From: Nakamurella endophytica
GTDB lineage: Bacteria > Actinomycetota > Actinomycetes > Mycobacteriales > Nakamurellaceae
Assembly: GCF_014646215.1 (NCBI RefSeq)
Contig: NZ_BMNA01000003.1
Span: 372,001-436,000, forward strand
Reading direction: 5' to 3'
DNA: 64,000 nt
The position numbers and the translations under genes are program-made. Shown here piece after piece: positions 6,655-57,662 of this stretch. A model generated the notes under the pieces. The model saw nothing but the letters and a program-made list of their open reading frames with translations, had not been told where the DNA came from and did not search any database. Each line of letters begins with the position of its first letter. The first letter of the stretch is position 1.

Positions 6655-8295
6655 TCACGCGAAGACGACGTTGAGGACGACGCCCAGGGCGAGGACCACG
6701 CCCCCGAGCAGGACCGGTCTGCGCCACCACACCGGATCCCGCGGCTCGCTCGCCCGGTTCCTGCGCGACCAGACGATGTCCGCGATGGCGGCCGGATCCG
6801 GCTTCGGCGTGACGGCGGTGACCACCAGGCTGACCACGATGTCCACGACGAAGGCGACACCCGCCTGGATGAAGGTGGCGTAGATCGCCGACGCCACGCT
6901 GAACACACCGGTCTGGAACAGGAAGAAGGTGGCCGAGCCGCTGACCACGCCGGCCAGCAGACCCCAGAAGCCGCCCCACGCCGAGGTCTTCCTCAGGAAC
7001 ATGCCCAGGATGAACGTCGCGAAGATCGGGGCGTTGAAGATCGAGAACAGCGACTGCAGGTACACCATGATGTTGTTGAAGTGCGACGCCAGGATGGCGG
7101 TGAAGACGGCGATGACGATGCCCACCACGGTGACCAGCCGGCCGGTGCGCAGGTAGAACGAGTCGCTGCGGTTCCGGCGGAGGTACGGCTGCACCAGATC
7201 GTAGGTCACCACGGTGTTCAGCGACGAGACGTTGGCCGCCACACCGGCCATGAACGACGCGAACAGCCCGGTGATCGCGATCCCCAGCACGCCCGAGGGC
7301 AGCAGTCGCTGCATCAGGGCCGGAATGGCGTCGTTGTAGGTCAGGCCGCTGCTGGTGCCGAAATCGGGAATGGCGACCAGCGCGACCAGACCCGGGATCA
7401 CCGTGACGGCCGGGATCAGGAGCTTGGGGTAGGCGGCGATCAGCGGCGTGCGGCGCGCTGCGGACAGATCCTTGGCCGACAGCGCCCGCTGCACCTCCGC
7501 GAAGTTCGTCGTCCAGTACCCGAAGGACAGCACGAAGCCCAGGCCGAGGACGATGCCGATCCAGTTGGCCCCGATCGGGTTCGGGTCGACGGCGCCCACC
7601 CCGGTGCCCTTCCACGCGTGCAGGCCGTTGTCGCCCAGCGCGGTCCGGGTGACCTTGTCGGCCAGCGCGGAGAAGCCGCCGACGTTCTTCACCGCAGCGA
7701 TCGACAGCGGGATGAGACCGGCCAGGATGATGAAGAACTGCAGCACCTCGCCGTAGATCGCGCTGGAGAGCCCGCCGGCGCCGATGTAGGCGAGGACGAA
7801 CGCCGCCGACACCACGATGCCCAGGTAGAGGTTGATGCCCAGCAGCGCCTGCAGCACGATGGCCAGGGCGTAGAGGTTGACCCCGGCGATCAGCACGGCC
7901 GAGATGGCGAACACCACGGCGTTGAGCACGTGCGTCGGGTTGTTGAACCGCACTTTGAGGAACTCCGGGACCGACCGCACCTTGGCCCGGAAGTAGAACG
8001 GCATCATGACGATGCCCAGGAACACCATGGCCGGCACGGCGCCGACCCAGTAGTAGTGCACCGTCGCCACGCCGTACTGCGCCCCGTTGGCCGCCATCCC
8101 CAGGATCTCCGTCGCCCCGAGGTTGGCGCTGACGAAGGCCAACCCGGTGATCCACGCGGGCAGCGACCGTCCGGCCAGGAGGAAGTCGGCGCTGGTGCCG
8201 ACCGCGCGCCGCGCGAAGAAGCCGATGCCCAGCACGGTGAGGAAGTACAGGGCCAGCAGCACGATGTCCAAGGCGCTGGGATGCAGTCGCAGCAT
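6655..8295 (-). CDS. Sodium:solute symporter, SSS family
   Basis: The 546-residue membrane protein is a predicted Na+-coupled importer with about 13-14 helices. Its N-terminus (LYFLTVLGIGFFARR, then LAGRSLPAWITGLAFVSANLG) is typical of the SglT/monosaccharide branch, and GGLSSAIYGEVLQFF is a conserved SSS segment. ATG 8295 is preferred over GTG 8310 because GAGAGGAC lies five bases upstream. A sugar or monocarboxylate is the likely substrate, but I cannot choose between them. Confidence 0.9.
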   Translation of the reverse strand: MLRLHPSALDIVLLALYFLTVLGIGFFARRAVGTSADFLLAGRSLPAWITGLAFVSANLGATEILGMAANGAQYGVATVHYYWVGAVPAMVFLGIVMMPFYFRAKVRSVPEFLKVRFNNPTHVLNAVVFAISAVLIAGVNLYALAIVLQALLGINLYLGIVVSAAFVLAYIGAGGLSSAIYGEVLQFFIILAGLIPLSIAAVKNVGGFSALADKVTRTALGDNGLHAWKGTGVGAVDPNPIGANWIGIVLGLGFVLSFGYWTTNFAEVQRALSAKDLSAARRTPLIAAYPKLLIPAVTVIPGLVALVAIPDFGTSSGLTYNDAIPALMQRLLPSGVLGIAITGLFASFMAGVAANVSSLNTVVTYDLVQPYLRRNRSDSFYLRTGRLVTVVGIVIAVFTAILASHFNNIMVYLQSLFSIFNAPIFATFILGMFLRKTSAWGGFWGLLAGVVSGSATFFLFQTGVFSVASAIYATFIQAGVAFVVDIVVSLVVTAVTPKPDPAAIADIVWSRRNRASEPRDPVWWRRPVLLGGVVLALGVVLNVVFA

Positions 8296-8600
8296 CGGGG
8301 GTCCTCTCACGGCGCGTCCTGGCAGACGACTCCGCTACGGTCACCGGTCCGTAGAGCGCCTAAACACTGCACCGTGCCGGCGTCGGAGCACGGCGGGACG
8401 CCGGAGCGGCCGAGGACTTCAGAACGGTCGCTCGACCGGCGGTGGGTGCGGGGCGGACCCTTGAGCGTCGGTCACGACCGTGGTCGGCGGAGCCCTCGCG
8501 GCGAGCGCCGGAGCGACCCGGGCGTCGCCGCCGAGTCGCCCGACGCTGCTCGTCGCGTCCTAGGGGTGCTGACGGAGCGGATCGGCTCCGAGCGGGTTTG
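8296..8600. other. Intergenic region between symporter and MarR gene
   Basis: About 300 bases with no convincing gene. The part next to the symporter contains the palindrome at 8335-8354 and would hold the symporter promoter on the minus strand. The remainder is GC-rich and contains the 3' flank of the marR gene. I saw no RNA gene here. Confidence 0.5.
8335..8354. promoter_or_regulatory. Palindrome upstream of the symporter gene
   Basis: CTACGG (8335-8340) and CCGTAG (8349-8354) are perfect inverted repeats around an eight-base centre. The element lies 40-59 bases upstream of the symporter start, a normal position for an operator. Confidence 0.45.
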
Positions 8601-9086
8601 CTACGAGTCCGACTCCGCGAGGTGGGAGCGGAGCGCACCGGTCGCGGCCGCCAGGTGGTCCAGCTGCGGTGCGGTGAAGGCGTCGACGAAGACCTCCCGC
8701 ACCGCGCGCAGGTGCGGGACGGTGGCCGCCCGGAACGCGCGCTCGCCGGTGTCGGTGAGCGAGATCTCCGCGCCACGGTTGTCGGTCGCGCACTCGTCGC
8801 GCCGGACCAGGTCCCGTCGCTCCATGCGCCCGAGGTGGTGCGACAGCCGGCTCCGCTCCCACCCGATCGTCGCCGCCAGCTCCGAGGACCGCAGCGCGCG
8901 CGGGCGGGCCTCGCTCAGCGCCAGCAGCACCTGGTAGTCGCCGATCGACAGCGACGACTCGGCCTGCAGCCGTGCGGCGAGCCGCGACCGCAGCCGCTCC
9001 GCCGTCTCGATGTACTCCCGCCACACCCGCAGCTCGTCCGTCGACGGCAACTGCCGACGCCGGACGGATCCCGTTGCCCGTGTCAC
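8601..9086 (-). CDS. MarR family transcriptional regulator
   Basis: This protein of about 161 residues has the MarR winged helix: LSIGDYQVLLALSEA, then LRSSELAATIGWERSRLSHH and a wing with DNRGAEISLTDTG. It is divergent from the flavin-dependent oxidoreductase at 9200, and a perfect palindrome lies just upstream of its start. GTG 9086 is preferred over GTG 9095 because GAGAGG (9100-9095) would be optimally spaced (eight bases) only from 9086. It probably represses itself and the divergent oxidoreductase genes. Confidence 0.9.
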   Translation of the reverse strand: MTRATGSVRRRQLPSTDELRVWREYIETAERLRSRLAARLQAESSLSIGDYQVLLALSEARPRALRSSELAATIGWERSRLSHHLGRMERRDLVRRDECATDNRGAEISLTDTGERAFRAATVPHLRAVREVFVDAFTAPQLDHLAAATGALRSHLAESDS

Positions 9087-9101
9087 CTCGGCCACCTCTC
9101 A

Positions 9102-9140
9102 TTGACATATCAACGATATGCCGCATGCTGGACGTGTCAA
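9102..9140. promoter_or_regulatory. Divergent promoter/operator between marR and the LLM oxidoreductase
   Basis: CATATC-AAC-GATATG (9106-9120) is a perfect 6-3-6 palindrome. TTGACA occurs on the plus strand at 9102-9107 and on the minus strand at 9140-9135, so the site has mirror-image -35 elements. On the minus strand TATCGT (9118-9113) follows with a 16-base spacer as a -10. A MarR dimer bound to the palindrome would block that -10 and the plus-strand -35. Confidence 0.7.
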
Positions 9141-9199
9141 CCAGCGGCGGGCCGGTCCGGTGATCGGCCCGCCGGCGACAAAGAGCGAGTGGCGCCGCC

Positions 9200-10261
9200 A
9201 TGACCGGCATCGAGTTCGGCATCGACAGTTTCGGCGACCTGCCGCGGGACGACCGTGGCCAGGTCGTCTCCCAGGCCGCCGCCATCCGGGCCGCCGTCGA
9301 CGAGGCCGTGCTGGCCGACCAGGTCGGCATCGACGCCGTGGCCCTCGGCGAGCACCACCGTCCCGAGTACTCCATCTCCACCCCGGAGACCGTGCTCGCC
9401 GGCATCGCCACCCGGACGGAACGGATCCGGCTGGGCTCCGGCGTCACGGTGCTGTCCTCCGACGATCCCGTCCGGGTCTTCCAGCGGTTCGCGACGCTGG
9501 ACGCGCTGTCCCACGGCCGGGCCGAGGTCATCCTGGGACGCGGCTCGTTCACCGAGTCCTTCCCGCTCTTCGGCTACGACCTGTCCGACTACGACCTGCT
9601 CTTCGACGAGAAGATCGACCTGTTCTCCCGGTTGCTCGACGAACGGCCGGTGACGTGGGAAGGCACGACGCGCGCCGCGCTGCACGAGGCCGACGTGTAC
9701 CCGAAGACCGAGTCCGGGCGGCTGACCACCTGGGTCGGCGTCGGCGGATCGCCGCAGTCGGTCATCCGCACCGCGCACTACGGCTTCCGGCTCATGCTCG
9801 CGATCATCGGCGGCAACCCCGCCCGGTTCGCCCCGTACGTCGACCTCTACCGGCGTGCCGCCGAGCAGCTCGGTACGACCGCCCATCCGGTCGGCATGCA
9901 CTCGCCCGGTTTCGTCGCCGACACGGACAAGGAAGCGGTGGAGCTGTACTACCCCGGCTACCGCGAGACCCGCGACCGCATCGGCGCTCTGCGGGGCTGG
10001 CCGCCGTTGCGCCGGCAGGAGTTCGACGCCGAGGTGCAGCACGGCTCCCTCTACGTCGGGTCGCCCGAAACCGTGGCACGCCGGATCGCCGGGGCCGTCC
10101 GCGCCCTCGACGTCGGCCGGTTCGACCTCATCTACTCGTCCGCGGGCGCGGTGTCCGCCGGTGCCCGGCTGCGTGCCGTCGAGCTGTACGGCACCAAGGT
10201 GGTGCCGCTCGTCCGCGAGATGCTCGCCGAGGACCGGGTCGTGCTGCAGGCTGCTCGGTGA
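9200..10261 (+). CDS. LLM-class flavin-dependent oxidoreductase (luciferase-like)
   Basis: The 353-residue protein has the bacterial-luciferase-like TIM-barrel pattern: [20 protein letters not shown] near residue 40, [21 protein letters not shown], and [14 protein letters not shown]. Such enzymes are FMN- or F420-dependent monooxygenases or reductases. It is followed seven bases later by an F420:NADP-reductase-like gene, which suggests that the pair handles reduced flavin or F420. Expression is probably controlled by the divergent MarR protein. Confidence 0.88.
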
Positions 10262-50412: not shown

Positions 50413-52476
50413 ATGACTACGGGGGAGACATTGCCGCGGCGATTGGTGAAAGGTGCGAACGTCGCACTGCGCGATCTGGATGCCGAGCTTGGTTCGGTGA
50501 CAGTGGTGCTGGAGTCCGGGGGCACGTCCGACCTTCCGGTGGCGGCCGACGCCAGCGTGCTGCTGCTTGCGGCGGACGGGCGCGCACGATCGGACGACGA
50601 CCTGGTGTTCTACAACCAACCGGTCGCGCTGGGGGGTGCGATCCATCTTCGCGAGAAGGTGCGGTCGGATGCCGCCGACGATTCGGGCGAGGACGCATCG
50701 GCGGACATCATCACGCTGGAGCTGGACGACGTGCCGGATGACGTGGACCGTATCGTCCTGGCGGCGAGCATCGATCCGGGCTCGGATGCCACCTTCGGCG
50801 ATGCGACTGTCCTGTCCATGCGCCTCCAGCGCACGGCAGACGCACAGGACGTGCTGTCGTTCCCAGTCGAGGGCGCTTCCAGGGAGACGGCGCTGCTGTT
50901 CGGGGAGTTCTACCGCCGGAACGGCGAGTGGAGGGTTCGGGCGATCGGGCAGGGTTACGAGCACGGACTCGCGGCGCTCATTGCAGACCATGGCATTGCA
51001 GTTCAGGACGACAGTTCCTCCACGATGACCGATCCCCCGGAGGCTGGCACGGAGCCGGTCGGTGCTGTGGAGGCGATCCCCGCTGATGACGCTGGAGACG
51101 AGGCGGCAGGAGACTCCGCTTCTGTGCCCGGACCCGCCGCTCAGACGGCACAGCGTCGGCTGTCCGTACGGCGGCCCGCCCGAGCGCCGCGGATGCCGGC
51201 TGATTGGAACGCCACCATTCCCGCCGACGACGTCACCGATTGGCAGCGGGCACGGCTGTTCCCGGTTGCGGGCATCGGCGGTGGCGAGGAACAGGAGCGT
51301 CGGGCCACTTCGGCCCTGCTGGCGGTGATGTCGCTCGTCCGCGACTTCGGCCGAGCTCTGACCGCTCGCTGCGGCGCACCTGCGGGCATGGTCGAGACGT
51401 TCATCGAAGTGCCGTTCGGTCATGACGAGGAGGCCTATCGGCCGGACGGCGTCATCCGGGTGACCCGTGGTCAGCGCATGTGGCAGGCGTTGGTGGAGGC
51501 GAAGACCGCAACGGGTCAACTTCGAGCCGACCAGGTCGAGAGCTATCTCGGAATCGCCAAGGACAAGGGCTACGACGCCGTTGTCACGATCAGCAACGAG
51601 CTGGCCGGAGCTGAGGACAGTCCGGTGAGCGTCGACCGTCGGAAGCTCAAGAAGGTGAAGCTCATCCACCTCTCCTGGGATCAGATCCGAACGCAAGCGG
51701 TCCTCTTGACACGACATCACGGGGTCGCGGACCCGACCCAACGCCGGGTCCTGGACGAATTCGTGCGATACATGTCTCACCCCAAGTCGGGCCTGCACGG
51801 ATTCACCGACATGGGGCCCCGCTGGGTCGGCGTCCGCGACGCCGTCAAAGCAAGGACTCTGCGCAGCGGCGACCGGAACGCGGCGGAGGTCAGCGGCCGC
51901 TTCGACCAACTGGTCGAGCACGTCGCATTGCGGTTGTCCGCTCTGCTGGGCGTCGAGGTGCAATCGCTTCCGCCGCGGAACGCTCCGGATGCGGCAACTC
52001 GATGCCAACAGTTGGCCGACTCGGGTCTGCTGTTCGGGACTCTCCGGGTGCCTGGAGCCGTCGACGTTCTCGTGCTCAGCGCGGACCTGCGCGCGGAGCG
52101 GGTGGCTTGCTCCATCCAACTCGACGCTCCGCGCGACGGTCGGCCGCTGACTCGGGTGAATTGGCTGCTCCGGCAGCTGCCGGTCGGCGCCCGGGACAGC
52201 TTGCGTGTCGAGGCCGCACTCGCAGGCGGAAGGGGTGCGTCTACCGCCGCACTGGTCGGCGCGCTCCGGAAGAAGCCCGAACAACTGCTGCCCGCGGACG
52301 GCCGCGAAATCCGGGCCTTCCGGGTGGTCATGGAGGCGCCGATCGGGTCCCGGCGGTCCTCCGTCCCGGGAGGTCTCATCAAGTCGGTGCAGGACCTGAC
52401 AAACAGCTTCTACGCGGAAGTGGTGCAGAACCTCAGCCCTTGGAACGCGCGGCCGCCGCGCGTGCCGGCCCAGTGA
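50413..52476 (+). CDS. TerD domain fused to a PD-(D/E)xK-like nuclease domain
   Basis: The 687-residue protein has a TerD domain at about residues 10-195: LVKGANVAL, then DDDLVFYNQPVALGGAIHL and TLELDDVPDDVDRIVLAASI. TerD proteins bind Ca2+; here the usual GDNLTG loop is replaced by an acidic stretch (87-106). After an acidic, Pro-rich linker (200-275) comes VAGIGGGEEQERRATSALLA and a predicted nuclease core with P344-D345-G346, E362-x-K364 (VEAK) and Q374, the PD-(D/E)xK pattern. A third region (about 480-687) is of unknown fold. Ter-linked DNA-processing systems are known, so a stress or phage-defence role is plausible. In-frame starts at 50386 and 50401 are less likely. Confidence 0.78.
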   Translation: MTTGETLPRRLVKGANVALRDLDAELGSVTVVLESGGTSDLPVAADASVLLLAADGRARSDDDLVFYNQPVALGGAIHLREKVRSDAADDSGEDASADIITLELDDVPDDVDRIVLAASIDPGSDATFGDATVLSMRLQRTADAQDVLSFPVEGASRETALLFGEFYRRNGEWRVRAIGQGYEHGLAALIADHGIAVQDDSSSTMTDPPEAGTEPVGAVEAIPADDAGDEAAGDSASVPGPAAQTAQRRLSVRRPARAPRMPADWNATIPADDVTDWQRARLFPVAGIGGGEEQERRATSALLAVMSLVRDFGRALTARCGAPAGMVETFIEVPFGHDEEAYRPDGVIRVTRGQRMWQALVEAKTATGQLRADQVESYLGIAKDKGYDAVVTISNELAGAEDSPVSVDRRKLKKVKLIHLSWDQIRTQAVLLTRHHGVADPTQRRVLDEFVRYMSHPKSGLHGFTDMGPRWVGVRDAVKARTLRSGDRNAAEVSGRFDQLVEHVALRLSALLGVEVQSLPPRNAPDAATRCQQLADSGLLFGTLRVPGAVDVLVLSADLRAERVACSIQLDAPRDGRPLTRVNWLLRQLPVGARDSLRVEAALAGGRGASTAALVGALRKKPEQLLPADGREIRAFRVVMEAPIGSRRSSVPGGLIKSVQDLTNSFYAEVVQNLSPWNARPPRVPAQ

Positions 52477-54942: not shown

Positions 54943-54992
54943 TCTTTCGCACGGGTCCACCCGGTAGCTCGCCATGTCCGTTGTGCGAAAGA
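54943..54992. promoter_or_regulatory. Ten-base inverted repeat in the divergent region
   Basis: TCTTTCGCAC (54943-54952) and GTGCGAAAGA (54983-54992) are perfect arms separated by 30 bases, i.e. about four helical turns centre to centre. This is the layout of a two-site operator, or of a long-loop hairpin. Confidence 0.5.
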
Positions 54993-55115
54993 TGTCCCGC
55001 GGGTGTATCAACCGTCCCGTGCCGATGCTCGGTGGCACCGCGGTCGGCGAACCGGCCGGCTCGCGACGTCCCGTTGCCACCGTCTCGGCGCAGTGCGACA
55101 GGAGGCCGACTGTCC

Positions 55116-57662
55116 ATGTCCATGACCGACGAGCGGGCGACCAGCGGCGAGACGCCGGCCGGCCGAGAATCGCAGGACGATCACGACCGGTCCCAAGGAC
55201 CGCAGCCCCCGATGCCGTCGTCCTCGGCCATCGAGGAGCGTGGCCGGCGGCTCGGGGTGTACGCGTTGGCTACCGTTGCCACGAGCGGGGCGGTACTCGC
55301 CCTGGTGCTCGTCGTCGACGGGGTCACGGCCGGTCGCACGTGGCACCAAGGGATCTCGAATCCGGCGTTCCTCGTGACGGCCGGCCTGACCGTCGCCGTG
55401 GCCGTGACCGCCGTGCTCCGCCGACTGGCGCTGGCGGTGGTCGTGTCCATCGGTTCCCCACGGGTCCCGGCTCCGGCGGACCCGGCCGGCGGCGGACCGG
55501 GCGCCGGCCGGGGCGGCGGTGCCGCGGGGACGGCACCGCAGGACCGGCCGGACACCGTGATCTGCTGCTCCGGCGGCGGCATCAAGTCGGCCTCGTTCTG
55601 CCTCGGAGCACTCCAGGTACTGAACACGCCGACCACCCCGGGGGAGACGTCCACCCGGTACGAACGGGCCGATGCCGTCGTGGCCGTCAGTGGGGGTGGC
55701 TACACGGCCGCCGCCTTCGCCGCCCGGTACGCGCAGCCGGACCGGGATCGGAACCAGCGCCCGTTCGCCCCCGGCGGGAGCGACGTCGCCGAGCTCCGGC
55801 GCAACACGAACTACCTGGCCTCGACGGCGCGGGCGCGCTTCGACCTGGTGTCCTGGCTGTTCCTCGGCATCCTGGTGAACCTGCTGATCGCCGGCGCCGC
55901 CGTCTGCGTCGTCTCCTGGCTGCTCGTCGAGCACGTCCGTCTGGTGGGGCTGGTCGACGTGTCCGGCGGCGAGCACGCCCGCTGGCGGTTCGATCCGGGC
56001 GGCCGTTCCGCCATCGGGCTGTTCTGGATACCGAGTGCGCTGGCCTTGTCGTCCTTCGTGACGTTCCTGTGCTGCCAGCTGTTCCCGGGCCGACTGCGGC
56101 GCCTTGCGGACGGGATCGCACGCCGCCGACGCGACGGGGCGTCCCGCTCCGCCGACGGCTGGATCGGTGCGGCCGCGGCCTGGCTGGACAACACCCCGAA
56201 CACGCTGCTCGCGATCTCCGTTGCCGTGCTGGTCTTCTATCCCGGGGTGCCCTGGCTCGCGTGTCTGCTCCACGACTTCTGGCTTGCCCATCCGCTCGGC
56301 AGTTGGGCCGGCGGCATCACCGTCGCCGGCGTCCTCTCGGCCGTCAGCACGGTCGCCGCCCTCGTCAGGTCGTCGATGAAGGCGACGGCCGTCGGGCACG
56401 ACTCCTCCGTGGGGGCACGCATCCTGGCGTTCGTCCGCAGTCGTCTGGCGCCCAAACTGGGCGTCGCGGTGGCCGGGCTGCTCGGCTTCGTGCTGCTGGT
56501 GGCAGAGACCTCCTGGCTGCTGGCACCCGGTCGTTCAGCCGCCCTCGTCCTGACCGTCGCCTCGGTCCTGACGGCGGTGACGATCTTCCTGTCGGCCAAC
56601 AGCACCTCGATGCACACGTTCTACCGGAACCGGCTGGCCAAGGCCTTCCTGCCCGAGGCGCCCCCGACACCACCGGGGTCCGAACCGCGCCGCGGCGCCG
56701 CACTCGCGGTGGCGGCGCGAGGGGAGTCCGGACTGCACCCGCACCCACGGCTGGTGCTCTGCGCCACGGCCAACGTCCAGGACGGCGACCTGCTGCCGAC
56801 CGCGCGGAACGGGACCACGTTCGTTCTCGGTGACGAGATCGGTTTCACGGACGAGACGCTCGGCGATCTGTCGGGGACCGGGTGCCTGCCGACCGGGGAC
56901 TGGCGACCGTGGAATCTGTCCCACGACCCGATGACCCTCGACACGGCGATGGCCATCTCGGCGGCGGCCGTCGCACCGCTGGCCGGTCGGGCCGACAAGA
57001 CCTGGGGCGCCTACCGCCTGCTGCTGGCGCTGGCGAACATCCGCCTCGGCGTGTGGGTCCGCAATCCCTGCTGGATGCGACACCCGACCGACGCTGTCAC
57101 GGGGTCCTGGCGGAAGACCGTGCTGCGGCTCGACAGGTGGATGGGGGCCCTGACGCCGTTCCAGGTCGTCGCCGAGGCGTTCGGGACGGCGAGCATCTAC
57201 CGGCCGTTCCTGTACCTGACCGACGGCGGCCACTACGACAACCTGGGTCTCGTCGAGGGTCTGCGCCACAGGCCGCGGGAGATCGTCCTGCTGGACGGAT
57301 CGGGCGACGCCGAGGACACCTTCGCCGGGATGGGCGACGCCATCGCGTCGGCCCGGATGGACCTCGGAGTCGAGATCGACTTCGAGCCGGGACCGATGCA
57401 GCGCGGCGCCGGGGAGCGACCGGCGCGGGCCTGGACCTCCGCGACGGCCACCTGGCCGGGTGGGGCGACGACCGTCATCCACTACCTGAAGTGCGTTCTC
57501 CCTCAGGGCCTGTCCTGGGATCTGGAAAGCTATCGGAAGCGGCATCCGGGGTTCCCGGTGAGTCAGTACACGTACGAGATGTACGACGAGTTCGACTTCG
57601 AGGCCTACCGCAACCTGGGCGCCTCGGTGATGACCCGGGCGCTGGCCGCCCACTGGTGCTGA
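55116..57662 (+). CDS. Multi-pass membrane protein with patatin-like phospholipase domain
   Basis: The 848-residue protein has two N-terminal helices, a Gly/Pro linker and then a patatin-type core: the oxyanion motif GGGIKS (153-158), the nucleophile S192 in VSGGGY and the catalytic D703 in TDGGHYDN. Between S192 and D703 lie further membrane helices (around 248-270, 308-325, 370-395 and 440-500), so the catalytic domain is interrupted by membrane segments. Patatin domains are lipid acyl hydrolases. AGGAGG precedes ATG 55116. The two-component genes follow within five bases, which suggests a joint operon. Confidence 0.83.
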   Translation: MSMTDERATSGETPAGRESQDDHDRSQGPQPPMPSSSAIEERGRRLGVYALATVATSGAVLALVLVVDGVTAGRTWHQGISNPAFLVTAGLTVAVAVTAVLRRLALAVVVSIGSPRVPAPADPAGGGPGAGRGGGAAGTAPQDRPDTVICCSGGGIKSASFCLGALQVLNTPTTPGETSTRYERADAVVAVSGGGYTAAAFAARYAQPDRDRNQRPFAPGGSDVAELRRNTNYLASTARARFDLVSWLFLGILVNLLIAGAAVCVVSWLLVEHVRLVGLVDVSGGEHARWRFDPGGRSAIGLFWIPSALALSSFVTFLCCQLFPGRLRRLADGIARRRRDGASRSADGWIGAAAAWLDNTPNTLLAISVAVLVFYPGVPWLACLLHDFWLAHPLGSWAGGITVAGVLSAVSTVAALVRSSMKATAVGHDSSVGARILAFVRSRLAPKLGVAVAGLLGFVLLVAETSWLLAPGRSAALVLTVASVLTAVTIFLSANSTSMHTFYRNRLAKAFLPEAPPTPPGSEPRRGAALAVAARGESGLHPHPRLVLCATANVQDGDLLPTARNGTTFVLGDEIGFTDETLGDLSGTGCLPTGDWRPWNLSHDPMTLDTAMAISAAAVAPLAGRADKTWGAYRLLLALANIRLGVWVRNPCWMRHPTDAVTGSWRKTVLRLDRWMGALTPFQVVAEAFGTASIYRPFLYLTDGGHYDNLGLVEGLRHRPREIVLLDGSGDAEDTFAGMGDAIASARMDLGVEIDFEPGPMQRGAGERPARAWTSATATWPGGATTVIHYLKCVLPQGLSWDLESYRKRHPGFPVSQYTYEMYDEFDFEAYRNLGASVMTRALAAHWC

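What the first reader, a model, noticed from the sequence alone, without database searches (positions are those of the whole stretch)
50413..52476. TerD stress domain fused to a PD-(D/E)xK-like nuclease: candidate defence or DNA-processing effector
One polypeptide joins a TerD domain with an altered Ca2+ loop to a region with D345, E362-x-K364 and Q374 in the spacing of restriction-type nucleases, plus a third unknown domain. Ter systems have been linked to DNA processing and phage resistance, but a single-chain TerD-nuclease is not a textbook form. The gene is solitary, of slightly lower GC, and flanked by non-coding DNA, as expected for an accessory cassette.
Basis: partly seen in the sequence, partly recalled or inferred. 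Interest (0 to 1): 0.78.

Follow-up and report, generated by a model that had tools for sequence, protein, structure and literature searches.

The report
Stress-sensor domain fused to DNA-cutting enzyme
One bacterial protein joins a stress-response TerD domain to what looks like an intact DNA-cutting enzyme and a partner-binding domain, an arrangement kept in various actinobacteria and some of their plasmids, which suggests that a stress or infection signal may be turned directly into DNA cleavage.

Summary
Window 50413-52476 (+) encodes 687 residues: TerD (10-192, Pfam E 2.7e-38), an acidic linker, a PD-(D/E)xK-type nuclease domain (about 277-456), and a third domain whose predicted fold is that of YbjN and type III secretion chaperones (about 488-681). 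E295, P344, D345, E362, K364, Q374 and Y378 are identical in 35 of 35 rows (window plus 34 relatives, two phyla); in the model D345 and E362 face each other on a beta hairpin. The nuclease-plus-chaperone-like module also exists without TerD in Actinomycetota and Pseudomonadota. The 19 TerD-fused rows examined lie on one side of one branch (support 96/89), so a single fusion suffices. All 19 lack the canonical GDN...GDDE acidic loop of TerD. In one relative the fusion sits inside a ter cluster, in another beside a TerF-like gene; in the window it is solitary. I found no direct evidence of phage defence. Most likely it is a TerD-gated nuclease effector of the Ter stress response; cleavage, ligand and trigger are untested. 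The main earlier survey of Ter systems could not be read, so priority is unsettled.

The parts
50413..52476 (+). whole gene: TerD-nuclease-chaperone-like fusion, 687 aa plus stop
   Evidence: relatives
50440..50988 (+). TerD domain, residues 10-192, without the canonical GDN...GDDE acidic loop
   Evidence: PF02342 E 2.7e-38; 2kxt E 1.2e-28; loop comparison
51010..51240 (+). acidic, Ala/Pro-rich linker, residues about 200-276, variable in length among relatives
   Evidence: sequence; linkers of relatives; pLDDT under 50 for residues 251-275
51241..51780 (+). PD-(D/E)xK-type nuclease domain, residues about 277-456, with E295, P344-D345, E362-x-K364, Q374-x3-Y378
   Evidence: 35 of 35 rows identical; model topology; fold matches; weak Pfam matches of relatives
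51445..51447 (+). codon of D345, just before model strand 2
51496..51504 (+). codons of E362-A-K364, end of model strand 3
51874..52455 (+). third domain, residues about 488-681, YbjN / type III secretion chaperone-like predicted fold
   Evidence: models and fold comparison; topology compared with passages of PMC3575483

Best explanation
It is a single-chain effector of the Ter stress response: an N-terminal TerD domain of the loop-less type senses a stress signal (a small, perhaps nucleotide-like ligand, or another Ter protein), and a flexible acidic linker joins it to a metal-dependent PD-(D/E)xK nuclease that cuts nucleic acid, probably DNA, when the signal comes. The C-terminal YbjN/chaperone-like domain would hold the nuclease in a dimer or bind a partner protein that restrains or targets it. 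SHOWN here by computation: the three-domain architecture, the invariant candidate catalytic set, restriction-endonuclease-like core topology in a model, a distribution that needs only one fusion event, absence of the canonical TerD loop in the 19 fusions examined, and ter-gene context in three relatives. INFERRED: nuclease activity, DNA as substrate, TerD as the trigger, ligand identity, role of the third domain. I put the domain reading at about 0.9 and the TerD-gated-nuclease mechanism at about 0.45.
For: Catalytic set identical in 35 of 35 rows, 7 of them from Pseudomonadota. Model (pLDDT 78.3, pTM 0.79): helix, three strands, helix, strand, strand, with D345 just before strand 2 and E362 at the end of strand 3. 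Nuclease part matches AspBHI, EcoT38I and MspJI by Foldseek (E 3.5e-3, 3.7e-3, 9.3e-3; prob 0.95-1.00) and FokI, PaqCI, BspD6I, Avs4, Card1, Cap4 and Hjc by VIA-align (Z 4.5-7.5). Relatives match VRR_NUC (13 of 28, best E 0.0018), Tox-REase-7 (3 of 28), Mrr_cat (1) and TnsA N (1). All 19 fused rows on one side of a branch, 96/89. L118: fusion inside a cluster with TerB, TerC/DUF475, several TerD genes and a C-C_Bond_Lyase gene; L009: a TerD plus vWA-TerF-like gene 234 bp downstream. Published proposals that TerD/TerB sense a nucleoside-like signal (PMC7824862 section 22 read; PMC7159879 passage).
Against: In 16 of 19 fused rows, window included, no further TerD-like gene clustered in the stretch examined (about 14-22 kb); only L009, L118 and L133 had one (in L122 my gene caller missed even the focal gene). 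The module exists without TerD in two phyla, so TerD may only modulate it. The window protein itself gives no Pfam match for the nuclease; the Pfam list of relatives also holds unrelated single weak hits (IL11 0.042, LEF-9 0.064, FliG_N 0.2 and others). No Foldseek hit reaches E 0.001 and TM-scores of the top nuclease rows are only about 0.2; every VIA Z for the nuclease is under 8, which the tool says may be only a common arrangement. The five models ranged from pLDDT 78.3 down to 56.5. The acidic loop is gone, so sensing of calcium in the canonical way is unlikely (calcium role of that loop recalled). No wet data.
Confidence: 0.45

Rival explanations
1. Anti-phage or anti-plasmid effector: the nuclease destroys invading DNA (or host DNA, as abortive infection), with TerD as the switch, as in CARF- or SAVED-gated nucleases.
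For: Patchy distribution (10 of 17 in the family; 19 of 396 in the phylum sample), 11 plasmid records, different genomic positions in near relatives. VIA matches to Avs4, Card1 and Cap4. TerD-less relatives near defence-like genes: SIR2-type in L158, Nhi/AbiO-like genes in L130 and L138, REase_II in L130. Literature speaks of a TerD-dependent anti-phage system (PMC3710099 passages).
Against: No PADLOC match for the protein; among 28 relatives only REase_II and PDC-M45A, one member each. Near neighbours 78 families from 138 proteins, far neighbours 56 from 128, with several models often naming one protein and only 25 families shown per list: inconclusive. No match in phage records or viral contigs (these scans rely on short patterns).
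Confidence: 0.25
2. DNA repair or DNA-end processing enzyme of the stress response: TerD reports oxidative or DNA damage, the nuclease trims or resolves damaged DNA, and the YbjN-like domain binds a DNA-repair partner, as DR1245 binds DdrB.
For: YbjN-fold DR1245 binds the ssDNA-binding protein DdrB (PMC3575483 passages); 4h5b (DR1245) matches the third domain, Z 6.8. Relatives hit a PHROG named Holliday junction resolvase (5 of 28, best E 0.0091). A minimal ter operon raised UVC survival about 5-fold in E. coli, although its authors favour an indirect effect (PMC8123226 passages).
Against: Patchy and partly plasmid-borne. No LexA-like match in the stretches scanned for 30 genes, but for L121-L123 that stretch lay inside the gene and for L140 there was almost none. 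I noticed no recurring DNA-repair neighbour in the gene lists, without a systematic search.
Confidence: 0.2
3. The TerD part is a passive docking or membrane-targeting module and the nuclease is constitutive, controlled only through the chaperone-like domain.
For: TerD-less forms keep the same active site and third domain; the fused TerDs have lost the canonical acidic loop.
Against: The fusion is kept over a range of Actinomycetota and TerD keeps the motifs GExY (18 of 19) and RAxGQG (19 of 19).
Confidence: 0.1

Closest known systems
TerD family (PF02342; 2kxt, 3ibz)
   Same: Full-length TerD match, motifs GExY and RAxGQG kept
   Different: Canonical GDN...GDDE acidic loop absent in the 19 fusions examined; carries two extra domains
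TerF (TerD plus vWA-TerF-like, PF10138)
   Same: Also a TerD domain with a C-terminal second domain; such a gene lies just downstream of the fusion in L009
   Different: The tail here is a nuclease plus chaperone-like domain, not vWA
Card1 and Cdn1 (CARF, recalled) and Cap4 (SAVED/CARF) signal-gated nucleases
   Same: Sensor domain plus restriction-type nuclease in one chain; the nuclease part matches 6wxw, 8z4i and 6wan with Z 6.0, 6.0 and 4.5
   Different: The sensor is TerD; no CARF or SAVED match. A cyclase or CRISPR link was not searched for
Restriction enzymes AspBHI, MspJI, EcoT38I, FokI
   Same: Predicted nuclease core
   Different: No methylase gene noticed nearby, not searched systematically; no significant sequence similarity
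YbjN / DR1245 / type III secretion chaperone (TY-chaperone) fold
   Same: Third domain: helix, three strands, helix, two strands, helix, as described in PMC3575483, with one further short strand and helix after the first helix; 27 of the first 32 VIA entries are of this group
   Different: No sequence match to a YbjN family; fused to a nuclease

Membership tests
TerD family | Match to PF02342 above its curated cut-off over the full domain | tested here: met
   131.8 bits against 25.3, profile 4-186 of 187
TerD family | Canonical acidic loop GDN...GDDE (calcium role recalled, not tested; a subtype feature, not part of the Pfam definition) | tested here: not met
   0 of 19 fused against 7 of 7 canonical TerDs
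PD-(D/E)xK superfamily | Conserved D, (D/E)xK and helix residues (motif recalled) | tested here: met
   E295, D345, E362, K364, Q374, Y378 in 35 of 35 rows
[quoted passage not shown]
   AlphaFold2 model, mean pLDDT 78.3; coordinates not available, site inferred from the DSSP string
PD-(D/E)xK superfamily | Significant profile or fold match | tested here: inconclusive
   best Pfam E 0.0018 among relatives, none for the window protein; Foldseek best E 3.5e-3 with low TM-scores; VIA Z under 8
PD-(D/E)xK superfamily | Metal-dependent cleavage | not testable with these tools
   needs purified protein
YbjN / type III secretion chaperone fold | Helix, three strands, helix, two strands, helix | tested here: met
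   models; 6vu7 Z 8.2, rmsd 3.5, 128 aligned; the top row 2a8e (Z 8.6) is an uncharacterised protein, tied within 1 Z
YbjN / type III secretion chaperone fold | Sequence family match (Pfam) | tested here: inconclusive
   no YbjN match; members are known for very low sequence similarity (PMC5398634 passages)
Ter system component | Encoded with ter genes | tested here: inconclusive
   yes in L118 and beside a TerF-like gene in L009, TerD about 2.5 kb away in L133; not in the window nor in 15 further fused rows
Known anti-phage defence system | Match to a PADLOC model | tested here: not met
   0 families at E up to 10 for the protein; two single-member weak hits among 28 relatives
CARF/SAVED-gated nucleases | CARF or SAVED sensor domain | tested here: not met
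   the N-terminal domain is TerD; no other Pfam family at E up to 10

The most novel reading that the evidence does not exclude
A third kind of signal-gated nuclease beside CARF- and SAVED-nucleases: loop-less TerD domains read a Ter-specific nucleotide-like messenger and switch on an attached PD-(D/E)xK nuclease, whose TY-chaperone domain keeps it silent or selects its target. This would make Ter a signalling immunity or damage-response system with a direct nucleic-acid-cutting output.
Probability: 0.25. Interest if true: 0.88.

Novelty: new variant of a known kind. Interest (0 to 1): 0.62.

Why it matters
What TerD senses and how Ter genes touch DNA are long-standing open questions. A protein in which TerD and an apparently intact nuclease share one chain gives a readout: TerD ligands or triggers can be screened by nuclease activity, and catalytic mutants separate sensing from cutting. 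The TerD-less relatives give a natural control. The YbjN/chaperone-like third domain is an unexpected partner and suggests a control step by protein binding.

Tried and rejected
Considered and rejected: chance resemblance of the ExK motif (35 of 35 rows conserved); artefact ORF (relatives, TerD match); prophage or viral origin (no match in phage records, or viral contigs). Considered, not supported: SOS control (no LexA-like match in the stretches scanned, of which four were not proper upstream regions); lower GC as a general mark (18 of 27 loci, sign test p 0.12, Wilcoxon p 0.023). A restriction-modification system was not searched for systematically; I noticed no methylase among the neighbours I read.

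Led nowhere: hmmsearch of the module profile against PDB sequences (two unrelated hits, E 0.62 and 0.73); NCBIfam (0 families); nine literature searches on TerD (two were empty, 37 listed 30 of 59): no title or abstract start shown names the fusion. Of papers I saw passages of PMC7159879, PMC3710099, PMC3575483, PMC5398634, PMC9503650 and PMC8123226, and section 22 of PMC7824862 in full. Anantharaman et al. 2012, the survey of Ter systems that PMC7159879 cites, is not held, so it may describe this fusion. The near/far neighbour comparison used my crude gene caller, and only the first 25 families of each list were shown. Rows dropped: alignment A1 and the tree left out L137 (in-frame stop) and L140 (contig edge); of 10 Pseudomonadota matches I used 7, dropping one with a stop, one partial and one weak; the match in G086 is weak, near masked bases, and was not used. 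Of 11 plasmid records I opened 6.

Full report
What is there. The ORF at window 50413-52476 (+) encodes 687 residues. Residues 10-192 match TerD (PF02342, E 2.7e-38) and the solved TerD 2kxt (E 1.2e-28). The window's genome (4.94 Mb, 30 contigs) holds five further TerD matches, none beside this gene. On the left lies a divergent sugar-transporter operon (named from reading the translations), on the right a convergent gene with putative Ig domains (He_PIG). GC is 67.7% against 72.6% for the window.

The family. The part behind TerD was used alone as a query. It occurs in 19 of 396 genomes sampled from the phylum, one of them a weak match, in 10 of 17 genomes of the family, once in the own genome, and on 11 of 72,556 plasmid records, 5 Rhodococcus and 6 Streptomyces. 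No match was found in phage records or viral contigs. In ten plasmid records the gene is annotated 'TerD family protein'; the eleventh has no annotation. Of the 18 good matches, seven are fused to TerD, ten are not, and one is cut by a contig edge. With a profile, 10 of 349 genomes matched in the phylum of G412, the genome of a Croceibacterium locus, hence Pseudomonadota; the seven that I took further are open frames of 444 to 559 codons, too short for the module plus a whole TerD. The seven genomes reached through loci included four non-actinobacterial ones without a match.

Catalytic residues. In 30 aligned rows (29 cover the site) E295, R297, P344, D345, E362, K364, Q374 and Y378 are identical. 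With the Pseudomonadota rows added, E295, P344, D345, E362, K364, Q374 and Y378 are identical in 35 of 35 rows, R297 in 33 of 35. Identity to the window falls to 37% in the rows of A1, so the site is under strong constraint.

Fold. A model of residues 251-687 from four sequences (window, L007, L008, L009) has mean pLDDT 78.3 and pTM 0.79; the five models had pLDDT 78.3, 77.3, 68.9, 61.5 and 56.5. Its first part runs helix 41-58, strands 76-82, 96-102 and 105-113, helix 122-135, strands 139-144 and 166-171. D345 is model residue 95, E362 is 112: in a hairpin that turns at 103-104 they face each other. E295 is in the first helix, Q374 and Y378 in the second. Foldseek's best matches are AspBHI, EcoT38I and MspJI (E 3.5e-3 to 9.3e-3, TM-scores about 0.2); none reaches 0.001. 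VIA-align lists many restriction-type nucleases at Z up to 7.5 over model residues of about 32-206. Relatives match VRR_NUC, Tox-REase-7, Mrr_cat and TnsA weakly, beside a few unrelated single hits. Each is modest; that they agree with the invariant motif is what convinces.

Third domain. Alone (residues 478-687) it models with pLDDT 78.5. Of the first 32 VIA entries, 27 are YbjN, DR1245 or type III secretion chaperones (some proteins more than once), best 6vu7 (YbjN) Z 8.2, rmsd 3.5, 128 aligned; 2a8e (Z 8.6) and 1yb3 (Z 8.2), both uncharacterised, stand at the top as well. Foldseek alone gives only 2a8e below E 0.1. The order of helices and strands agrees with that given for this fold in PMC3575483, with a further short strand and helix after the first helix. 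YbjN proteins are thought to act by protein binding (PMC5398634 passages with the abstract), and TY-chaperone domains are described in other conflict systems (PMC9503650 passage).

TerD part. All 19 fused TerDs examined lack GDN...GDDE, which 7 of 7 canonical TerDs have; RAxGQG is kept in 19 of 19 and GExY in 18 of 19. L121's open frame starts at about residue 36 of the domain; a frameshift or sequence error is possible.

Origin. In a tree of 35 rows the 19 fused rows lie on one side of one branch (support 96/89), needing one change of label (mean 11.9 in shuffles, 0 of 500 as low). The root is unknown, so fusion or fission could be the event, but TerD-less forms in a second phylum favour fusion. 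At DNA level the window shares only the gene itself with L115, L116, L117 and L007, not its flanks, whereas L116 and L117 share a position. This fits an accessory gene that moves.

Context. L118 (same genus) has the fusion in a cluster with TerB (PF05099), TerC/DUF475, several TerD genes and a C-C_Bond_Lyase gene. In L009 (Streptomyces flavofungini) the next gene is TerD plus vWA-TerF-like (PF10138 E 5.3e-58). L133 has a TerD gene about 2.5 kb away. The other 16 fused rows, window included, showed none. In six annotated plasmid stretches no further ter gene is listed, though that table is incomplete; two of six have a RES family NAD+ phosphorylase nearby. Some TerD-less relatives sit near defence-like genes: SIR2 type in L158, Nhi/AbiO-like genes in L130 and L138 with a weaker AbiO hit in L124, REase_II in L130. 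PADLOC families over 138 near and 128 far neighbours were 78 and 56; the number of proteins hit is not given and several models often name one protein, so I claim no enrichment and exclude none.

Interpretation. The Ter literature proposes that TerD and TerB sense a nucleoside-like signal (PMC7824862; PMC7159879) and mentions a TerD-dependent anti-phage system with McrBC-like parts (PMC3710099 passage). A TerD domain fused to a nuclease fits a sensor-effector of the type known from CARF and SAVED nucleases. That is a working likeness, not membership. The mechanism is inferred; identity of the domains is well supported.

Novelty. Nine literature searches on TerD (two empty) showed no title or abstract start that names this architecture, but the central survey of Ter systems could not be read. 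I therefore call it a new variant of a known kind.

Noticed in passing
L162 (G000:C3:12000-31900), about 7650-10119, minus strand: The window's genome has a TerD plus vWA (TerF-like by reading) ORF next to a TerD plus proline-rich ORF; these TerDs also lack the canonical loop by eye.
   Followed up: partly
L124:6883-8721, L130:4521-6632, L138:12988-14919: Genes of one similarity cluster near three TerD-less modules; two hit the PADLOC models Nhi and AbiO, the third AbiO weakly.
   Followed up: partly
L158:6381-9002: SIR2-domain gene (PF13289) with much lower GC3 (0.39) directly next to a TerD-less module in Pseudomonadota.
   Followed up: partly
window 54981-57662, +: 893-aa ORF that looks like a patatin-type lipase with membrane helices, by reading only.
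   Followed up: no
Nocardioides litoris genome (G416), contig C13 near 692 kb and 781 kb: Two matches to the module in one genome, each with one TAG reported inside.
   Followed up: no
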